This document shows, one piece after another, positions 303 through 29,385 of a DNA stretch of 64,000 bases. The stretch spans positions 186,001-250,000 of the forward strand of contig CAMPDV010000285.1 in assembly GCA_946699065.1 (NCBI GenBank), given 5' to 3'. The translations under genes were made by a program, and so were the position numbers. Within the stretch, counting starts at the first letter, position 1. Every line of letters begins with the position of its first letter. A model generated the notes under the pieces. It saw nothing but the letters and a program-made list of their open reading frames with translations, did not search any database and was not told where the DNA came from. The DNA comes from Loxodes magnus. Taxonomy: Eukaryota > Ciliophora > Karyorelictea > Loxodida > Loxodidae.

Positions 303-1118
303 ATGGAAGAATTCAAAAGAGGTTTCTACAACACCTTTAAGAAATTGGAGAGAGAAACAAGCTCAGAAGACAACACATGCAATAACCCCAACCTCATAAG
401 AGAAGCCAATGAAGCATATGAAATCTGCTCTTTACTAGGAGGTCTCGGAATTCAATCATTCTAGCCAGATGAGTATGGAATAAGTAATCAAAGTGATATT
501 AAACCTTCAGGAAGAGGTCGGGAAGCTGAAAAAGGACAATGACAAACTAATGGAGAATCTGAACAAGCAAGAGGAATCGATTCAAGATTTACATCTCAAG
601 GGTGAGATCTAAGCGCTTTCTTGAACATATCTCAGAGTGCGAACAACTAATCCCAGAATCAAGATTAAAAATACAGAGAAATTGACTGTAAATTAGCATA
701 GTTAGCAGAAAATCAGCAAGCATTGCAAAAGTAAATTGAATCAAGGGATTAGAATTAAGATAAGATGGAGATCGAAGAAATTAAAGTTGACAATCCTTTA
801 TACAAGCGAGAAGTGAAACGTGCTACTAAAGTGGTTCAAGAGTACACTTGTGAAGGAAATGTAGGAAATTCCTCAATTTAAAACAGATTTAAAGGAAAAA
901 TTAAAGATAATGGTAGGAAAAAAGGAAGAGGTAGCAGCTCAAATTTAGAAGGAATAGAGAACAGTTATGGATGAACGTTTTTGAATATATGCAAGAAAAA
1001 AGGCAACTAGTAATGGAAGTGGAATTAGAGACTTTAAGAACATGCAAGACAGAACAGTGGGTGGAGTATGAATATTTAATTTTAGCCTCCGGAGCAATCT
1101 AAAGGCAGGCTAGGAGAT
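303..1118 (+). pseudogene. Gag-like zinc-knuckle protein, copy A (decayed)
   Basis: First of a family of about nine related copies in this window. The N-terminus reads MEEFKRGFYNTFKKLER and matches the copies starting near 16,817 and 41,960. A coiled-coil stretch follows, then near 830-870 a CCHC knuckle read as C-Y-Q-S-G-S-R-V-H-L-W-R-K-C. The second Cys is lost, and TGA supplies the Trp before R-K-C. The tail (EYEYLILASGAI) is shared with copies B and C. Several frameshifts separate these blocks, so this is a fossil. The sequence switches abruptly at about 1,118 into a fragment of the ubiquitin-like gene. CCHC knuckles are typical of retroelement Gag/ORF1 proteins that bind RNA; that role is inferred. 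No reverse transcriptase follows. Confidence 0.65.
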
Positions 1119-2085
1119 TACGAAATAAGAAATGATTAGATAATAGACTTAGAGGTAAAGAAAAAGATTAGAGTTATAGGTAAGCACTTAAAGTGGAAAG
1201 AAATTTTGTTTACGAGTAGATAAAAATGAAGAAATAAGAAACATAAAAAGAAAGATAGGAAATAAAGAAAAGATAGGGCAAAAAAGATTTAAGTTAATAA
1301 AAGAGTATAAAAGAAAGATAGAAGAAGGGTATAAATTATGAAATTATGGAATAGTAAGAGATTAAAATATTTATTTAGAATATGATTTCAAAGGAGGAAT
1401 CTAAATATTTGCTAGAGCATAGATAGGTAAAAAAATAGTGCTTGATGTTTTATCTTCTTATACTATAGAAAGTGTAAAAAATAAAATATTTGATTAAGCA
1501 GTCTTTGATCCTAAACTCATTTATGGAAAAAATGAATTAGAAGATGATTATACACTACCTGATTATAATATTTCACATAAGTCAACTTTAAGTTTAATTT
1601 TACTTTAAGAAGAGTTCCTATAATATTTGTAAAAACATAAGATGCAAAACGAAAGCATTTAATGTTGAACTTTCTATTACAGTAGAAAAGGTAAAAGCGA
1701 AAATATAAAACAAATGAAGTACTCCTGCTGATAAATAAATACTTATTTTTAATGGTTAAAAGCTAGAAGATAATCTCTACTTTAAAGCGTTATAAAGCAA
1801 GAGTCAATTCTTATTTTAGATTTTCATATTTAGATTAAAATTAATCACCCTGATAATAAATCTGTAGTAGTTAGTACCTTTCAATCATAAAAAATAGAAT
1901 ATATCAAACAATAAATTTATGAGCAATAAAGTATCTAAATTAATCAGCAAATACTTATTTATAACGAATAAGAACTAGAAAATTAGAAACATATCTATCA
2001 CTATAATATTCAAAATGATTACTTTTCTATTGTGGAAAATCCCTTTTAGTTGTGATACTTTAAATTTATAAAGTTAAGTTCTTCA
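1119..2085 (+). pseudogene. Fragment of multi-ubiquitin-like gene (no RING part)
   Basis: Matches the middle of the minus-strand gene at 11,876-15,350, starting at the segment reading DNRLRGK. With TAA/TAG as Gln and TGA as Trp it encodes three successive ubiquitin-like units. They contain IESVKNKIFDQ with YGKNELEDDYTL, then VEKVKAKIQNKWSTPADKQ with FNGQKLEDN, then a third with YNEQELENQ. The second is closer to real ubiquitin (I-F-V-K-T, VKAKIQ, LEDN) than its counterpart in the full gene. There are frameshifts near 1,160 and 1,650. It lacks the RING, B-box, coiled coil and last repeats, and joins the zinc-knuckle fossil upstream. Probably a partial copy, perhaps moved by the neighbouring retroelement. 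Confidence 0.75.
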
Positions 2086-8823: not shown

Positions 8824-9340
8824 TTAGGTAAACCAGTCACTGAATTTAATTCGCTAATCTTATTTAATATGAATAAAATTACGAAAATTTGTATCGAAGT
8901 AGAGTTATTTATGAGGAAAAGGATTCAAATAGGTGGAAGGATTTCGAATAGTTTCAGGAAAGTCAAGCTAAGGGGATAAAAATGTAGATTTATTCAAAAT
9001 ATCCTTAGAATCCAGTTAAGACAATAAATCTAAAATTAAGTCAGTATTACTTTAATGCTGTTTTAAGATAGAATAAAACAAAGACGAGTGACCAAAAAAG
9101 TCAGAACTTAACCATATACCAGGATATTGTTTAAAAGCATTTTCAATATACTATGTTCTTCCTAAAAAGCATGCAAAATGAAGAGGAGTAAAGTAATAAG
9201 AAGATAAAAAGCAATTTCAGAAAATAACTTTATTCCGAGATCCAGAAGCAATACAATTTCAAACATTCAAATAAGAAATTAGGGAAATATTTTGAAGAGG
9301 AACATGCAACAAATCTAAATAAAATAAAAAAACTTTAAAT
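8824..9340 (+). other. Inserted coding-like fragment, Lys/Gln-rich
   Basis: Starts beside a run of about 15 A residues and reads plus-strand as a coherent peptide (EEKDSNRWKDFEQFQESQAK, LKLSQYYFNAVLRQNKTKTS, FKHSNKKLGKYFEEEH). There is no clear ATG and no recognised family. It separates the WD40 and channel blocks, which lie on the opposite strand, so it looks like an insertion into one gene. The antisense translation is Phe/Leu/Ser-rich and less credible. Confidence 0.4.
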
Positions 9341-9384
9341 GCTTTGAAACTTTGATTATCGGCCTATATAAATATTAGTATATT

Positions 9385-9986
9385 TTTAGAGGTTTCAAAC
9401 TTTTATAGAATTGTCTTATCCATCTGGACCGAATGAAACACGATTAACAAAATCTTAATGTCCTTTTAATGTGGCAATTTCGATTTTATTTTTTAGGCTT
9501 CATAGTTTATAGTATTGTCTTATGAAGAACTAGCCAGCGTAAATCCGTCAGGACTGAATGAAATACATGTAACAGAATTTTCATGTCCTTTAAGAGTAAT
9601 TATTTCAGTATTATTTTGGAGGTTCAAAGTTTTATAGTCTTACCTCATGATAAACTAGCTAAAGTTGATCCATTTGGACTGAAAGTAAAATAATTAACAG
9701 AACTTTCATGTCCTTTAAGAGTTATAATTTCAGTATGATTTAAAATATTTCAAAGTTTTATAGTTTTGTCTTATGAAGAACTAGCAAGTGTAGATCCATC
9801 AGAACTGAAGGAAACACATGTTATAGAATCTTAACGTCCTTCAAGAATGATAGATATAGTTTCATTTTAGAGATTTTAGAGATTTCAGAGTTTTATTGTC
9901 TTACCTTCAAAAGAACTAGACAGTGTAGATCCATCAAGACTGAAAGAAACACAGCAAATGGATTCGTTATCATTTTGATGCTCCAT
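9385..9986 (-). pseudogene. WD40 repeat block, frameshifted
   Basis: Begins MEHQNDNESICCVSFSLDGS and carries four WD40 units. Each has the GH...V/I-S-F-S-x-D-G-S-T-L-A-S-S-S-x-D-x-T-I-K-L-W pattern, for example SVTCISFSPDGFTLASSS. The terminal Trp is encoded by TGA in three units, good evidence for the code. One base is missing near 9,630 (KLW-NLQNNTEII) and the last unit near 9,440-9,500 is damaged. WD40 domains are beta-propeller scaffolds. WD40 repeats fused to ion-channel domains are, to my knowledge, found in other ciliates, and the channel block lies downstream on the same strand. I infer one former gene spanning about 7,555-9,986. Confidence 0.75.
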
Positions 9987-10362
9987 GCTTTTCGATTTAT
10001 TCTTTAATTTTATGAAACGTATTTCATTCAAGTTAATTTTTTTTCTTCTGTTATTATTTAATTTTCTTCTTTATTTTCCTTTTGTTAAGTTTCGTTCTTT
10101 TCTTATTTATCGATAAAACTTACTTAAAGTGATTTCGACATTTTAGAATAAAAAATAAAAAAAGATTGCACGATAAAAAAATTAATTGCGAGTTTTTTCT
10201 ACATTTTTTTATCTCAAAATGATTTAATTTTACGTTTTTTAACTTTTAAACATTTTCAGTATATTAAGAAAAGAAATTTTATATTTTTCGCTTTTTTTTA
10301 TATTTTCTTATTTTTTCATTGGAATTTATATTTTTTAATTTTTTCTGGATGATCGAAAGGAT

Positions 10363-11714
10363 TTGAAAAAGCAACTAAAGAATACAAGAAATAAAGAGCG
10401 GGGAATATTAGAAGAAGGATTAGATGAGAGCAAAACGCCTACGCAAAAGATGGGTATAAAGAGACCAAAAGAAAATCTGATAAAATTGAGTGAGAAGCAG
10501 AGAGATAGAAAAATGGTTGAGAAATTTGAAATCACTTTGGTCAGAAAATTCTTCATATCAGTATATCAGAAAGAGTAAGCTTAAAATTTGATATCCTTCG
10601 CGGACCTTAAGCAAGAAGTTAAAAAGCTTCTTATTGAAAAAAGAAATATCCTGATCTAAATCGCTAATCTAATAAAGTGAAAGGAGAGATTTTAAGAAAC
10701 CTATAGCAGGGAATAAAACGAACTCTAGAACGAGATGGAAGCCATCAACAAGAATATAAGGTCTATAAAAGAAGCGCTTGAATCATAGATGAGGCTGATG
10801 AGGAAGCGGTTTTTTACTGCAAGTAATTTAGACCTAAAAAGGATGAAGAAATAAATAATAAGAACCAAAAATGGTATATAAATGATGAAAAGAAAACATT
10901 GAAGAAGAAGAAATTATAGAATTTATTAAATAGGAAAAAAATGGATACTGGTGCTGCAGAAGATGTAAAAAGATTCAAAGATGCATGATAAAAATTATAT
11001 GGGGACGGAAATAGGACACTAACAATGAAATTTGCAAATGAAAGTAAAATAGAGGTATATGAATACAAAATATGGGAAAATCTTCAGTGAATAGCTAATG
11101 AAAAATAGCTGGATCAGATAAATTCAAGCAAGAGCAAATAGGGCAAGTTGGCAAAAATTATTAGAAATAGCATCTAGTGTGAGATTATTCGCAGAGCAAT
11201 ATACACTTCATCAGATAACTTACTAGTTCTTTTGGCCACGGCCAACATTCATATTTTATATTATGAAATAAAATAACATTTTTATTTAGCATCATTTGCG
11301 CAAAAGACTGAAAAACCTATAATAAGAGCTAAAATAATAAAAATAAAAACTTGAAAAATTAGAGTAGAATCTAGAAAAATAGCTGAGGAACTAAAGCTTT
11401 AATTTCCAACTATAAAGGATGCTAGCAATCAGATTTAATCTCAAATGAGAAGATAATTATATAGAGGAATGTTGATAAATGAATCAAAATGAAGCAAATA
11501 ATAAAATAATGATCAAAATGATCAAAGGAACTATGGGAAAAATAAAATAAAAGTTAAAGACGATGAATAACTAGCAGACAAAGAAAAATATTTATCAGGA
11601 TAGAAAGAATAGGGAGATACTTTTAAAAACTACTTAAGTATCATGGAAAATTTTATAGGCACAATTCAATCAGATTCAACTAATACTATAAAGATCCTAT
11701 TAAAGGAGAAATAA
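10363..11714 (+). pseudogene. Unknown coiled-coil/gag-like protein with a frame change
   Basis: The 5' part begins MKKQLKNTRNKERG and is charged and coiled (SFADLKQEVKKLLIEKRNIL; EMEAINKNIRSIKEALES). Around 10,770 the better frame changes. It then stays protein-like for about 300 codons (IIDEADEEAVFYCKQFRPKK; VKRFKDAWQKLYGDGNRTL; NLLVLLATANIHILYY; IMENFIGTIQSDSTNTIKIL) to about 11,714. No obvious stop was identified. It resembles the gag-like elements in layout but has no clear CCHC knuckle. The frame change could be a decay mutation or an intron that I could not place. Confidence 0.4.
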
Positions 11715-11875: not shown

Positions 11876-14800
11876 TCATTAAAAAAATAATTTTTAATTA
11901 AACTTCTATATGTTAATTTTGTTATTATCTGCTTTCAATTACACGATCTAGTATTCCTTTGTCATAATCTTGCAATCACTTAACGTTTCCTCATCTTATA
12001 ATTAATATCTCTCAAACTCTATTATTTAATTTTCAACTCTTATTCCTTAATATTTACTTATCTTCTTTTTTAGTTGCTTTATTGTATTATAAGGTTTCAT
12101 TTATAAGTCTAGCATTTATCCATTTTGTTATCTTATAGATACTTCCATTCCATATTAGCCCTTTTCTAAATTTTAATACTCTGATATAGTTTAATAGTCT
12201 TTTAGAAAAATTCCTTTATGAATTAATCTTTATTAGTTCTTATTTACTCCTACTTTAATTTCTAAATAACTCTTTACTCATTCAACAGTATCAGAAAGTT
12301 TTGCATTCACTATTATTACTTAACCCGTTTTAGTTTTAACCATTAATTAGTTAAGTTTTGATAAAGTTAATAACCTTAGAATATCATTATTGCTTATACT
12401 ATAGCGTTCTAAAGTTAGTTGATTATCTAGTATTTCATTATTAAAAAGTAGGGTTTATTAAACTACAGAGTAAGCTTATTTTTATCTTATTTTCTTTTTA
12501 GTAGATTAAATAGTATCTTCTTAAGAAACTTATATAGTAAAGCTATTACCATCTAAAGTCTTCATTCTAATATTAAAAGAAATGAAACTACTTATTTCTT
12601 GTTTATTTTGACTATTATAGTGATAGATATGTTTCTAATTTTCTAGTTCTTATCTGTTTTAATAAGTATTCGCTGATTAATTTATTGTTTGATATATTCT
12701 ATTTTTTATGATTGAAAGGTACTAACTACTACAGATTTATTATCATGAAGGTTAATTTTTACCTAAATATGAAAATCTAAAATAAGAGTTGCTTCTTGTT
12801 TTATTTTATAATGCTTTAAAGTATGATTATCTTCTAATTCTTTTCACCATAAATAAGTCAATGATAAGAAGGAATACCTTCTCTATATTATATTTACTCT
12901 TTTAATTTCTCTACTATTTAAGAAAATTCAATTTCAAGTATTATTGTTTTACCTATTAGTGTTTCTATAAATATCATAGAAAGTCCTATTATTGATTAAA
13001 TTATTTCCAAAGTTGACTCATGTGAAATATTATAATCATCTAATGTATAATCATCTTCTAATATTTTTTGTCCAGAAATGAGTCAAGGATGAAAACCTTC
13101 TTAATCATATATTTTGTCTTTTACACTTTCTATAGTATCAGAAGATAAAAAACCAACTACTATTATTTTGCCTGTTATTGTTCTAGCAGATATTTGCATT
13201 CCTCCTTTTAAATCATATACTAAATAAATATTTTAATCTCTTACTATTCCATAATTTCATAATTTATACCCTTCTTCTATCTTTCTTTTATACTCTTTTA
13301 TAAGCTTAAATCTGTTTTTCCCTATCTTTTCTTTATTTCCTATCTCTCTTTTTATGTTTCTTATTTCTTCATTTTTATCTACTCATAAACTCAATTTCTT
13401 TCCTCTTTTAGTGTTTACCTATAACTCTAATCTTTCTCCTTTACCTCTAAGTCTATTATCTAATCATTTCTATTGCGTAACCTCATAGAGTTTTTTAATT
13501 CTCCAATTCCTTTTTTTTGTATCATTAGCTTCTATTCGTTTACTTAGATTCCTTTAATCTAATAGATAATCTATTTAAGACGCTCTATCTGAACTCTTAT
13601 ATCTACTTTAATATAAAATTTAGAATTTTTACTTTATTAATTTCTATTTGTATTGATATAATACTCATTCTCAAATAGATGAGTTCTTAAGTTTGCTTAC
13701 TTAAGGTATTTGCTTTTATTAAAAGTTCAAACTTATTTACTAGTTTATCTACCTCTTTCTTTTTATTTATGTGATAACATCCTATGAAGTTTAGTTTTCT
13801 TCTATAACTATTTGTTTTTCTTAATAATCTGATATGATGATTTACATCTTATCAGTAGACTATACTTCTAAAGTAATATGATCTAGTTAATGCTTCTTTA
13901 TCTAGCAATGATATAAAGTATTTCAATCTTCTAATGTTTAGTCTTTAATCCTTAGCCTTTAGAGTTTTCTTTAAATGCCTAATCTTTATTATATAAGGTC
14001 TTTTATCTCTTTTACTGTATAAAACAAACTAGCATTTAGTTCAATTCATCTCTCTACTTCTAAAAATCATAGGATTTTAATATTGATATTTAAAAGGGTT
14101 AATTATAAGCGAAGTGTAGATAGTGGTTAAATATCGTAATGAGATAAAGTTTTATCATCAGTTAATCATTTTCCTTGGTAAGTTATTATTTAAAATGAAG
14201 GCTAAATATCATTTAGCTAGCATATTTTATCTTCAAGTTATCTAACGGTATCAGAGTATTTAGCAGATAATATAAATTTACTGTTATAACTTTCAATTAT
14301 TATCTATATTATTTTCATCTCAGCTTCTAACTTATGACTTTCTATACTATATAATTCTTTCAAAATGCTAGAATCATCTAGTTACTTATTATTTAATAAT
14401 AGCATTTAGTTCTAGGCTAATACTCCTTTCTTATATTTTTCGCTTTATTTCTTATATACTGTCTGATAGATTTGCTCTTATTGAATAGTTATCATTCCAT
14501 TAAATTTACACTTTTATCATTTATTCTTAAATCTCTTAGTTTTTGCCTTAACTAATTTCCAACAGCTCATTCTATTTCATTTCTTAGTTAAGTAAATTTG
14601 AATCAAAAAGGTTCTCATTTTAAGTAAGACTTTGGATTATATTTTATAAGATTTCCTATTTCGAGAATTATTATAGTTGATACTAAGATATCTCACTTTC
14701 TATTCTATAGTTATTAGGTATTTTATTCTTAAGCATTTAGATTTTTAGTCCATTTCTTCTATTTGTATGTCTTTAGCATTTTTAAGTTTTTCAATTTCGG

Positions 14801-15350
14801 AAATCATTTCTAATACTTGCTACTTATAAATGGAAAACAAATGATTAGCTTTTTAGTATTTTTCCTATTAGACTTGAAACATTTTCTTTATTTGACTAAT
14901 AATATATTTAACTAATAGTTAAGAAGCTTCTTAAAAGACTACTTTTTGCTAGTGGAATTACTATTAAATTTATATCTAAAGCATTTCTTATTTTTATTAG
15001 TTCTATGATTAAGTAAACTCTTCTATGGGCATAATGCTATTACAATTTTTGTGGTTTTATAGGAAACATATGCTACATATTTTTTAGCAATGCTATGAAC
15101 AGTAAAGGCCATATTATTTTTTATGCTTAGTACATTAAATTGCTTCTCCTTATATAAGATGTAATTGAGCTTCTAATTGACCTATCTCTTTCTAAATTTG
15201 TATATTGCATACTTAGCATAAATAAGTTTCTTTTCCTTTATTTTTTAGTATATAAAGACAAGTAATGCAAGATAAATGTTTGCACTCTAATAATAATGGA
15301 ATATTTTGGTTGCTATATTTGCTTTAGCAAACAGAACAAACATCATCCAT
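11876..15350 (-). CDS. TRIM-type RING/B-box protein with tandem ubiquitin-like domains
   Basis: ATG at 15,350, TGA at 11,876-11,878, about 1158 residues. The RING is C3HC4: C5, C8, C23, H25, C28, C31, C45, C48. A perfect B-box follows: C73, H76, C84, H87, C92, C95, H100, C103. A coiled coil covers roughly residues 110-270. From about residue 290 to the end come some ten divergent ubiquitin-like units, recognisable by the I-x-x-V/L-K-x-x-I and L-x-D-x-x-T-L-x-x-Y spacing. The clearest start at about residue 718 (MQISARTITGK) and again with MIFIETLIGKT, IRMKTLDGNS, MVKTKTGQV and MEVSIRQQNG. None ends in Gly-Gly, so cleavage into free modifiers is unlikely. Likely role: an E3 ligase that carries its own ubiquitin-like scaffold. 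One base is missing near 12,840 and another near 12,655. These may be assembly errors or early decay; restoring both gives a length divisible by three. Confidence 0.85.
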
Positions 15351-29079: not shown

Positions 29080-29112
<33 letters not shown>

Positions 29113-29190
29113 CAAACCCATCTCACGTTTTCTTTTGACTGGTGAACAATCCGACACTTGGTAAATTCTGCTTCACAATGATAGGAAGAG
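28760..29190 (-). rRNA. 28S (LSU) rRNA 3' fragment, about 430 nt
   Basis: The complement of the plus strand matches conserved LSU 3' sequence. On plus one sees TTCTGACTTAGAGGTGTTCA and TTTCTCTCGTACTGAGTTGG (sarcin-ricin loop side). AGTAGGGTAAAACTAACCTG, TCTCACGACGGTC and TTCTGCTTCACAATGATAGG follow. The 3' end is near 28,760 (AGCAGATCTTAAG). The 5' side is cut at AGGAAGAGCC (29,190), where the sequence passes directly into the 3' half of repeat R2. Some normally invariant positions differ, so this is a non-functional partial copy rather than an rDNA unit. 28,560-28,760 carries a partial duplication (GTAAAAC..AGCAGAG). Confidence 0.9.
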
Positions 29191-29385
29191 CCTTATTCAA
29201 GAAGACCGGAGCATTTAATTCAAGATTCGAGAATAATCTTTAATAAATAGAATCCCCATTTGGAGAAACTGACGTGACTCATTAGATTACTAGAATTTAA
29301 GCAAGAAGCATAAGAAAATTTTTCTTAATATTAAATACTAATATTGAAAGAGAGCTGCGTACCAACGAGATGCAACACGCTCTAT
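29190..29385 (+). repeat. Repeat R2, copy 5 (3' half, fused to rRNA fragment)
   Basis: Starts within TTATTCAAGAAGACCGGAGC and includes GATTCGAGAATAATC and GGAGAAACTGACGTGACTC. It ends in the hairpin GAGCTGCGTACC...(29,349-29,383). The 5' half is replaced by LSU rRNA sequence. Confidence 0.75.

What the first reader, a model, noticed from the sequence alone, without database searches (positions are those of the whole stretch)
11876..15350. TRIM-like E3 ligase fused to about ten tandem ubiquitin-like domains
One gene carries a complete C3HC4 RING, a complete B-box, a coiled coil and then, instead of a usual TRIM C-terminal domain, a long array of divergent ubiquitin-like repeats without Gly-Gly ends. 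I know of no described protein with this order. It could be a ligase that carries a fixed, uncleavable ubiquitin-chain mimic, either as a scaffold for chain-binding proteins or as an anti-transposon/immune-type sensor like animal TRIMs. The ligand residues and repeat spacing are seen; the function is inference.
Basis: partly seen in the sequence, partly recalled or inferred. Interest (0 to 1): 0.9.

Follow-up and report, generated by a model that had tools for sequence, protein, structure and literature searches.

The report
TRIM-type ligase with built-in ubiquitin-like chain
A ciliate genome carries a family of TRIM-like ubiquitin ligases whose tail is a row of about twelve ubiquitin-like beads; the copy in this window is a broken one, but unbroken copies elsewhere in the same genome show that the unusual design is real.

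Summary
The architecture is real, but the window copy is broken. Minus strand 15350-11876 holds a complete RING, B-box and coiled coil, then 12 ubiquitin-like (Ubl) units, interrupted by six frame changes. The host assembly (705.7 Mb) matches the published Loxodes magnus macronuclear assembly in size and genetic code. At least 21 other places there match much of the gene's DNA. The ten read at full length, and two distant relatives, run from RING through the Ubl array in one frame. Pfam ubiquitin matches 10-11 stretches per protein (E 9e-136 to 1.2e-171; six scanned). An AlphaFold model of the array matches linear tetra-ubiquitin; the N-terminus matches TRIMs. The RBCC tree splits into two clades: one carries Ubl arrays, the other (5 of 6 members) USP deubiquitinase domains. 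'No Gly-Gly ends' is only partly right: some inner units end in LRLRGG or LKGG. Six literature searches listed no such architecture, but no other eukaryote could be searched. Best reading: a TRIM E3 with a gene-encoded ubiquitin-chain mimic that recruits ubiquitin-binding proteins, possibly its USP-bearing sisters. The mechanism is inference; no expression or activity data exist here.

The parts
15207..15338 (-). C3HC4 RING finger, all eight ligands present
   Evidence: Pfam zf-RING_5 4.6e-4, below cut-off; ligands conserved in paralogs
15042..15134 (-). B-box, all eight ligands present
   Evidence: Pfam zf-B_box 1.3e-3, below cut-off; ligands invariant in 10 of 10
14745..15026 (-). coiled-coil region; in the paralog L039 a single ~100-residue helix
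14313..14525 (-). Ubl unit 1, split over two frames
   Evidence: 1.1e-5 and 9.8e-7
14088..14312 (-). Ubl unit 2
   Evidence: 8.7e-21
13857..14084 (-). Ubl unit 3
   Evidence: 6.8e-20
13643..13856 (-). position of degenerate Ubl unit 4, not detected by profile; strand-helix-strand pattern in the L039 model
13430..13642 (-). Ubl unit 5, other frame
   Evidence: 8.3e-9
13203..13430 (-). Ubl unit 6, ends DLKGG before MQI
   Evidence: 2.6e-5
12990..13202 (-). Ubl unit 7
   Evidence: 3e-16
12766..12980 (-). Ubl unit 8, split over two frames
   Evidence: 1.2e-6 and 8.6e-6
12572..12771 (-). Ubl unit 9, split over two frames, carries a deletion against the sister fragment
   Evidence: 0.0014 and 2.3e-4
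12356..12580 (-). Ubl unit 10
   Evidence: 4.7e-18
12155..12355 (-). Ubl unit 11
   Evidence: 2.1e-16
11879..12151 (-). Ubl unit 12 and C-terminal tail
   Evidence: 7.7e-16
11876..11878 (-). TGA, the likely stop codon of this reading frame
1095..2031 (+). degenerate fragment of a sister copy (end of unit 5 to unit 9); 1110-2016 is 83% identical in DNA to the gene

Best explanation
The window holds a frame-broken member of a Loxodes-type family of TRIM-like E3 ligases. The N-terminus (RING, B-box, long coiled coil) is a TRIM module; the C-terminus is a fixed head-to-tail array of 10-13 ubiquitin folds. Nearly all units have lost the Gly-Gly end and the Leu8/Ile44/Val70 patch, while in three of five members tabulated two or three central units stay 59-83% identical to ubiquitin. 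Most likely mechanism (inferred): the coiled coil dimerises, the RINGs load E2~ubiquitin, and the array serves as a genetically encoded, mostly uncleavable ubiquitin chain, a hard-wired version of the self-anchored chain that TRIM21 builds on itself. The array would recruit ubiquitin-binding proteins (proteasome receptors, UBA/UIM proteins, USPs) to whatever the dimer binds. A sister clade with the same RBCC carries a USP deubiquitinase instead, so the two may meet through their coiled coils. Shown: family, domains, folds, selection, clades, broken window copy. Inferred: dimerisation, ligase activity, chain mimicry, partnership.
For: Single-frame RING-to-Ubl reading in 10 of 10 paralogs read at full length and in both distant Ubl-clade members read. 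Pfam ubiquitin in 10-11 stretches, E 9e-136 to 1.2e-171, in 6 of 6 scanned. AlphaFold of L039: repeated beta-grasp units, mostly pLDDT 70-88, best match linear tetra-ubiquitin E 5.7e-38. RBCC profile to TRIM72 6.7e-11; 102-residue helix; fold matches TRIM21 3.4e-5, TRIM28 5.2e-5. Whole-alignment dN/dS 0.46-0.65 in eight of ten pairs, and 0.12-0.33 for the RING in the three diverged pairs. Six central units of three proteins against the cell's ubiquitin genes: pN 0.12-0.18 with pS 0.70-1.01. USP sister clade. Self-anchored chain of TRIM21: PMC7900206, abstract and outline seen.
Against: No expression, binding or activity data. Only 4 of 56 tabulated units keep Leu8, Ile44 and Val70 together, and the distant members L047 and L049 have no unit over 49% identical to ubiquitin, so the array may not bind ubiquitin readers at all. 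Some units keep cleavable-looking ends (L044), which argues against a strictly fixed chain. The window copy is broken. Two of ten pairs give dN/dS 0.86 and 0.89, and among close pairs the RING value runs from 0.36 to 1.26 on few changes. In 9 of 10 full-length copies no in-frame TGA follows within 80 codons of the last unit, so their 3' ends are not understood. AlphaFold used only ten rows; pTM of the full model is 0.27, and the coiled coil is poor in that model; TM-scores of the N-terminal matches are low (0.17-0.42 by query in the eight best).
Confidence: 0.48

Rival explanations
1. The Ubl array is a target-recognition tail, as PRY-SPRY or NHL are in animal TRIMs: each unit has evolved its own surface, and the expanded family is an immune-like or genome-defence sensor set.
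For: At least 21 other DNA-matching places, several in near-identical and inverted arrangement; domain mosaics such as L043, whose units 1-3 are near-identical to L039 while its RBCC is far diverged; unit 7 pN above pS in L039-L042 (0.12 against 0.04); the canonical binding patch lost in 52 of 56 tabulated units.
Against: Unit order and position-specific residues are kept across copies only 31-35% identical, more like a fixed scaffold; overall dN/dS below 1 in 10 of 10 pairs; central units kept ubiquitin-like in three of five members tabulated.
Confidence: 0.24
2. The gene makes a polyprotein: deubiquitinases cut at the surviving Gly-Gly ends and release modified ubiquitins, or leave an RBCC-to-unit-6 product with a free Gly-Gly end.
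For: DLKGG before the next unit in 6 of 10 aligned paralogs and in the window copy; LRLRGG-W and LRFRGG-M in L044; KLDGG in L047.
Against: Nearly all other units lack Gly-Gly; Arg72 is Asp in DLKGG; ends are not conserved between copies.
Confidence: 0.12
3. The array acts in cis to regulate the enzyme, as the tandem Ubl tail of USP7 does, for example by holding the RING or the E2~ubiquitin.
For: Fold similarity of the array to the USP7 HUBL tail (2ylm, E 3.6e-14); many Ubls in ligases and USPs act in cis (recalled).
Against: USP7 has five units, here 10-13; TRIM coiled coils usually keep the RING far from the tail (recalled).
Confidence: 0.12
4. The whole thing is an assembly or frame artefact, with RING and Ubl parts being separate genes.
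For: The window copy has six frame changes; L018 has one.
Against: Ten full-length paralogs on three contigs are unbroken; 18 of 19 best-matching loci are unbroken over the covered part; members at 31-45% identity keep the frame.
Confidence: 0.02

Closest known systems
TRIM (RBCC) E3 ligases: TRIM72, TRIM21, TRIM28, TRIM5
   Same: RING, one B-box, ~100-residue helix in that order; sequence profile and fold matches
   Different: C-terminal domain is a 10-13-unit Ubl array (or, in sisters, USP), not PRY-SPRY, NHL, PHD-BROMO or ARF (those classes recalled)
Polyubiquitin / linear (Met1) ubiquitin chains
   Same: Head-to-tail ubiquitin folds at about 72-77-residue spacing; central units 59-83% identical to ubiquitin in L039, L042 and L044
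   Different: Fused behind an RBCC; other units 26-51% identical and nearly all without Gly-Gly ends; no near-canonical unit in L047 and L049
USP7 HUBL tail (five tandem Ubls; number recalled) and other Ubl-bearing USPs
   Same: Tandem Ubls fused to an enzyme of the ubiquitin system (2ylm)
   Different: Enzyme is a deubiquitinase, not a ligase; five units
ISG15 and OASL tandem Ubls
   Same: Tandem Ubl pairs in innate immunity (role recalled); fold hits 7sbi, 5tla
   Different: Two units only, no RBCC
Ciliate and other OST-HTH proteins linked to ubiquitin-system domains (PMC2848206, passages seen)
   Different: An RNA-binding domain is the core; the passages do not say that RING, B-box and a Ubl array stand in one protein
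Parkin, HOIL-1L, UHRF1, RBBP6 (recalled)
   Same: Ligases of RING or RBR type with a Ubl
   Different: A single Ubl, no B-box
BUBL proteins of Tetrahymena (recalled; one search listed two papers, neither about them, neither opened)
   Same: Ciliate arrays of ubiquitin-like domains
   Different: Carry intein-like BIL domains and, as far as recalled, no RING or B-box

Membership tests
TRIM/RBCC E3 ligases | Complete RING with eight zinc ligands | tested here: met
   Ligands present in the window copy and in the ten aligned paralogs except His25, which is Asp in L049; zf-RING_UBOX over the curated cut-off in 6 of 6 scanned paralogs; no RING model over its cut-off in the window copy
TRIM/RBCC E3 ligases | B-box between RING and coiled coil | tested here: met
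   All eight ligands invariant in 10 of 10; Pfam B_box 24.6 bits in L042 (cut-off 24.1), 17.7-23.1, below it, in the other five scanned
TRIM/RBCC E3 ligases | Long coiled-coil helix that dimerises antiparallel | tested here: inconclusive
   Helix 109-210 at pLDDT about 84-96 in the N-terminal model, but poor in the full model; fold matches to TRIM28 RBCC; dimerisation not tested
TRIM/RBCC E3 ligases | E2-dependent ligase activity | not testable with these tools
   needs biochemistry
TRIM/RBCC E3 ligases | One of the known TRIM C-terminal domain classes | tested here: not met
   After the coiled coil, matches over cut-off are ubiquitin-like families, plus DUF2604 barely in L043, whose nature was not checked
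Polyubiquitin | Near-identical units joined by cleavable LRLRGG-M junctions | tested here: not met
   Units 26-83% identical to ubiquitin; nearly all junctions altered (56 units of five proteins)
Ubiquitin-fold (beta-grasp) domains | Sequence profile and fold of ubiquitin | tested here: met
   PF00240 in 10-11 stretches; fold match to linear ubiquitin
Functional gene at the window locus | Unbroken reading frame | tested here: not met
   six frame changes, deletion against sister fragment

The most novel reading that the evidence does not exclude
One TRIM module has been split in evolution into two partner families, TRIM with a gene-encoded mock ubiquitin chain and TRIM with a ubiquitin protease, which pair through their shared coiled coils into a writer/decoy/eraser machine: the mock chain parks, activates or blocks the USP next to the RING, making a self-contained ubiquitin switch that is set by gene dosage and not by conjugation.
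Probability: 0.15. Interest if true: 0.88.

Novelty: new variant of a known kind. Interest (0 to 1): 0.7.

Why it matters
A ligase that carries its own encoded ubiquitin-like chain would let one ask directly what an anchored chain does to a TRIM protein, without conjugation. Together with the USP-bearing sister clade it shows that a ciliate has rebuilt TRIM-like proteins around ubiquitin-system tails (writer with mock chain, writer with eraser), which animals are not known to have done (recalled). The large, mosaic family also offers a test of whether TRIM-based intracellular defence arose outside animals.

Tried and rejected
Considered and rejected or left weak: (a) the frame changes as 16-25-base introns: at two of the six (near 14,425 and 12,845), where a unit's alignment fixes the junction, I saw no GT...AG stretch of that length (by eye, not by program; the other four were not checked); (b) assembly truncation of homopolymers: A and T runs fall off evenly up to about six bases, but A runs are scarcer beyond seven, so errors at long runs are not excluded; the unbroken paralogs speak against a general error rate, not against a local one; (c) TGA as a stop throughout: the invariant Trp argues against; (d) a viral relative: one viral-contig scan with the RBCC alignment found 84 pattern matches and no confirmed relative. 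Led nowhere: Rfam and tRNA scans for naming the host; literature searches for the architecture and for BUBL. The seed profile was built from L039 units plus ubiquitin, so its unit calls in paralogs and window are not independent; Pfam is. The 19 loci are the best RING/B-box matches after the window itself, so weaker or truncated copies (for example short N-terminal matches on C52, C871, C697, C7059) are under-represented.

Full report
Where it is. The window is G000:C285:186,001-250,000; G000 has 705,730,643 bases in 7,843 contigs. The published Loxodes magnus macronuclear assembly is 706 Mbp (PMC11441545, section 8 read), with code 27 (TAA/TAG=Gln, TGA=Trp or stop) and introns of mean 19.3 bp (passages).

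The window copy. On the minus strand from ATG 15350, one frame gives RING, B-box and the start of a coiled coil with all sixteen zinc ligands. Downstream, ubiquitin-like units lie in all three frames: Pfam PF00240 E 2.1e-34, 0.013 and 4.9e-40 in the three minus frames. Frame comparison with a paralog and with a Ubl profile needs six frame changes (near 14,750, 14,400, 13,640, 13,430, 12,850 and 12,650) before the TGA at 11,878. A second fragment at 1,110-2,016 (+), 83% identical in DNA, shows further insertions and deletions against it and keeps sequence that the gene copy has lost; a copy of equal score stands on contig C372. The locus is best called a pseudogene of its own lineage, although a local assembly error cannot be ruled out without reads. 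Its intact N-terminal part still carries the mark of selection (dN/dS 0.18 to 0.38 against five relatives), so inactivation may be recent, or a short RBCC product may persist; this is not decided.

The family. A DNA search finds 18 other places over 700 bits and three lesser ones that still cover much of the gene or run off a contig end (C52, C697, C871, C7059); the same list holds shorter pieces on these contigs and on C74 that were not read. A protein search adds distant relatives such as C33 and C188. Ten of the 21 places were read at full length (L034/L042 as one place, L035, L036, L037, L038, L039, L040, L041, L043, L044, on three contigs): 10 of 10 show no match to the L039 protein in a second frame at E 1e-5. 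Of 19 best-matching loci that cover the first 516-625 codons, 18 are unbroken and one (L018) has a shift; these overlap with the ten. Two distant relatives, L047 and L049 (31-35% identical to the others), also have N-terminus and array in one frame. Counts include repeats identical at their start (L011/L012, L023/L025), so distinct genes are fewer.

Domains. Six full-length proteins were scanned with Pfam: ubiquitin in 11, 11, 11, 11, 10 and 10 stretches, E 9e-136 to 1.2e-171; zf-RING_UBOX over its cut-off in 6 of 6; B-box at 17.7-24.6 bits, over the cut-off of 24.1 in one. A profile built here from L039 units gives 11 units in L039 plus a twelfth, degenerate one seen only in the structure model, and one more in L035, L037, L038, L041 and L042. 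The RBCC alignment finds TRIM72 (6.7e-11), RNF4 (9.2e-10), TRIM21 (6.5e-9) and TRIM28 (2.1e-7) among 63 PDB sequences at E up to 0.1.

Structure. AlphaFold on L039 1-1196 with ten rows: mean pLDDT 69.4, pTM 0.27, array mostly 70-88, RING and coiled coil poor. Foldseek on it: linear tetra-ubiquitin 7yui 5.7e-38, USP7 HUBL (2ylm) 3.6e-14, OASL tandem Ubl 7.3e-14, ISG15 2.0e-12. On the N-terminal 301 residues alone: mean pLDDT 80.1, one helix 109-210; best matches TRIM21 3.4e-5 and TRIM28 5.2e-5, all eight hits at E up to 0.001 being TRIMs, though with low TM-scores over the whole model (0.17-0.42). The VIA-align library was not available.

Selection and unit evolution. Over ten pairs dN/dS for the whole alignment is 0.46-0.65 in eight and 0.86 and 0.89 in two very similar pairs; the RING gives 0.12-0.33 in the three diverged pairs and 0.36-1.26, on few changes, in the close pairs where it can be computed. 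Unit 7 has pN 0.12 against pS 0.04 between L039 and L042. L043 matches L039 closely in units 1-3 (pS 0.04-0.12) but not in RING, B-box and coiled coil (pS 0.51-0.73): a recombinant. Of 56 units tabulated from five proteins, two or three central ones in each of L039, L042 and L044 are 59-83% identical to ubiquitin; all others are 26-51%, and L047 and L049 have none above 49%. Six central units of L039, L042 and L044 differ from two of the cell's own ubiquitin genes at pS 0.70-1.01 but pN 0.12-0.18. The two ubiquitin genes differ from each other at pS 0.88 and pN 0.05, so synonymous sites are saturated throughout; the units are old and stayed ubiquitin-like, but the ratio is rough. Leu8, Ile44 and Val70 together are kept in 4 of the 56 units. 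Gly-Gly ends survive at unit 6 in 6 of 10 aligned proteins (DLKGG), twice in L044 and once in L047.

Sister clade. Besides L047 and L049, six more distant RING-B-box relatives were read. A ubiquitin carboxyl-terminal hydrolase (USP) domain is found in 5 of 6 (Pfam in L048, L050, L053, L054; by similarity also L051) and not in the 4.5 kb of L052. It is in the RING frame in L048, L050 and L053; in L051 and partly in L054 it lies in another frame, so a shift or intron is between. The Cys box reads NTCxMN in four and NTDWMN in L050, which would be inactive. A maximum-likelihood RBCC tree of 16 rows separates six USP-clade rows from ten Ubl-array rows with 98/99 support (midpoint root for drawing only, five of 13 inner branches strongly supported, L047 flagged as a long branch). 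I read this as one RBCC module with two kinds of ubiquitin-system tails.

How it may work. Shown: the parts, their order, folds, conservation. From established knowledge: RING with E2 makes a ligase and TRIM coiled coils dimerise (recalled); TRIM21 builds self-anchored chains (PMC7900206, abstract and outline; PMC6776665, start of abstract in a listing). Inferred: the array stands in for such a chain. Against: nearly all units lack the standard reader-binding patch, so some or all may bind other things; a target-recognition role is the main rival.

What is not known. No eukaryotic genome other than this one could be searched, so taxonomic range is open. That the architecture is not in print rests on the listings of searches in an open-access library; of the papers listed there only PMC2848206 was opened, for passages. 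It reports B-box, RING and ubiquitin-like domains linked to OST-HTH in ciliates and others, but the passages do not describe this order.

Noticed in passing
L048, L050, L051, L053, L054 (C111, C606, C606, C22, C2425): TRIM-like RBCC with a USP deubiquitinase domain in the same frame (L048, L050, L053) or close behind in another frame (L051, partly L054); L050 has Asp in place of the catalytic Cys. Ligase and deubiquitinase apparently in one protein.
   Followed up: partly
L035-L044, 3' ends: In 9 of 10 full-length copies no in-frame TGA lies within 80 codons of the last Ubl unit (next one 84-135 codons on in L037-L041 and L044; none in the locus in L035, L036, L042; 17 codons in L043), though TGA is the only stop reported for Loxodes.
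   Followed up: partly
G000:C32:1232544-1288873, C537:70502-103307, C2553, C930: Long tandem arrays of polyubiquitin genes with frequent steps near 1,055-1,066 bases; candidates were capped, so the arrays may be larger.
   Followed up: partly
G000, genome-wide (C248, C105 clusters): All 150 scored B-box matches are over the Pfam cut-off, out of 1,261 candidates: a large B-box repertoire; no other ciliate was compared.
   Followed up: no
L055 (C74:293001-297500): VWA domain followed by three Ubl units in one frame.
   Followed up: no
L043 (C52:123572): Mosaic copy: units 1-3 near-identical to L039, RBCC far diverged, most of units 4-5 deleted in frame.
   Followed up: partly
window 9259-10565 (-): WD40 repeats with a 125-base tandem period, spread over several frames; one frame ends at a TGA after GKTIKL, where WD40 repeats have Trp (recalled), in line with TGA=W.
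   Followed up: no
window 29094-29201 (-): Short match to bacterial LSU rRNA (60.2 bits), perhaps a mitochondrial insertion (guess).
   Followed up: no
L045 (C697:166601-172700) and similar places: Some clustered copies stand tail to tail; between the tails lies a ~890-base repeat that recurs on many contigs.
   Followed up: partly
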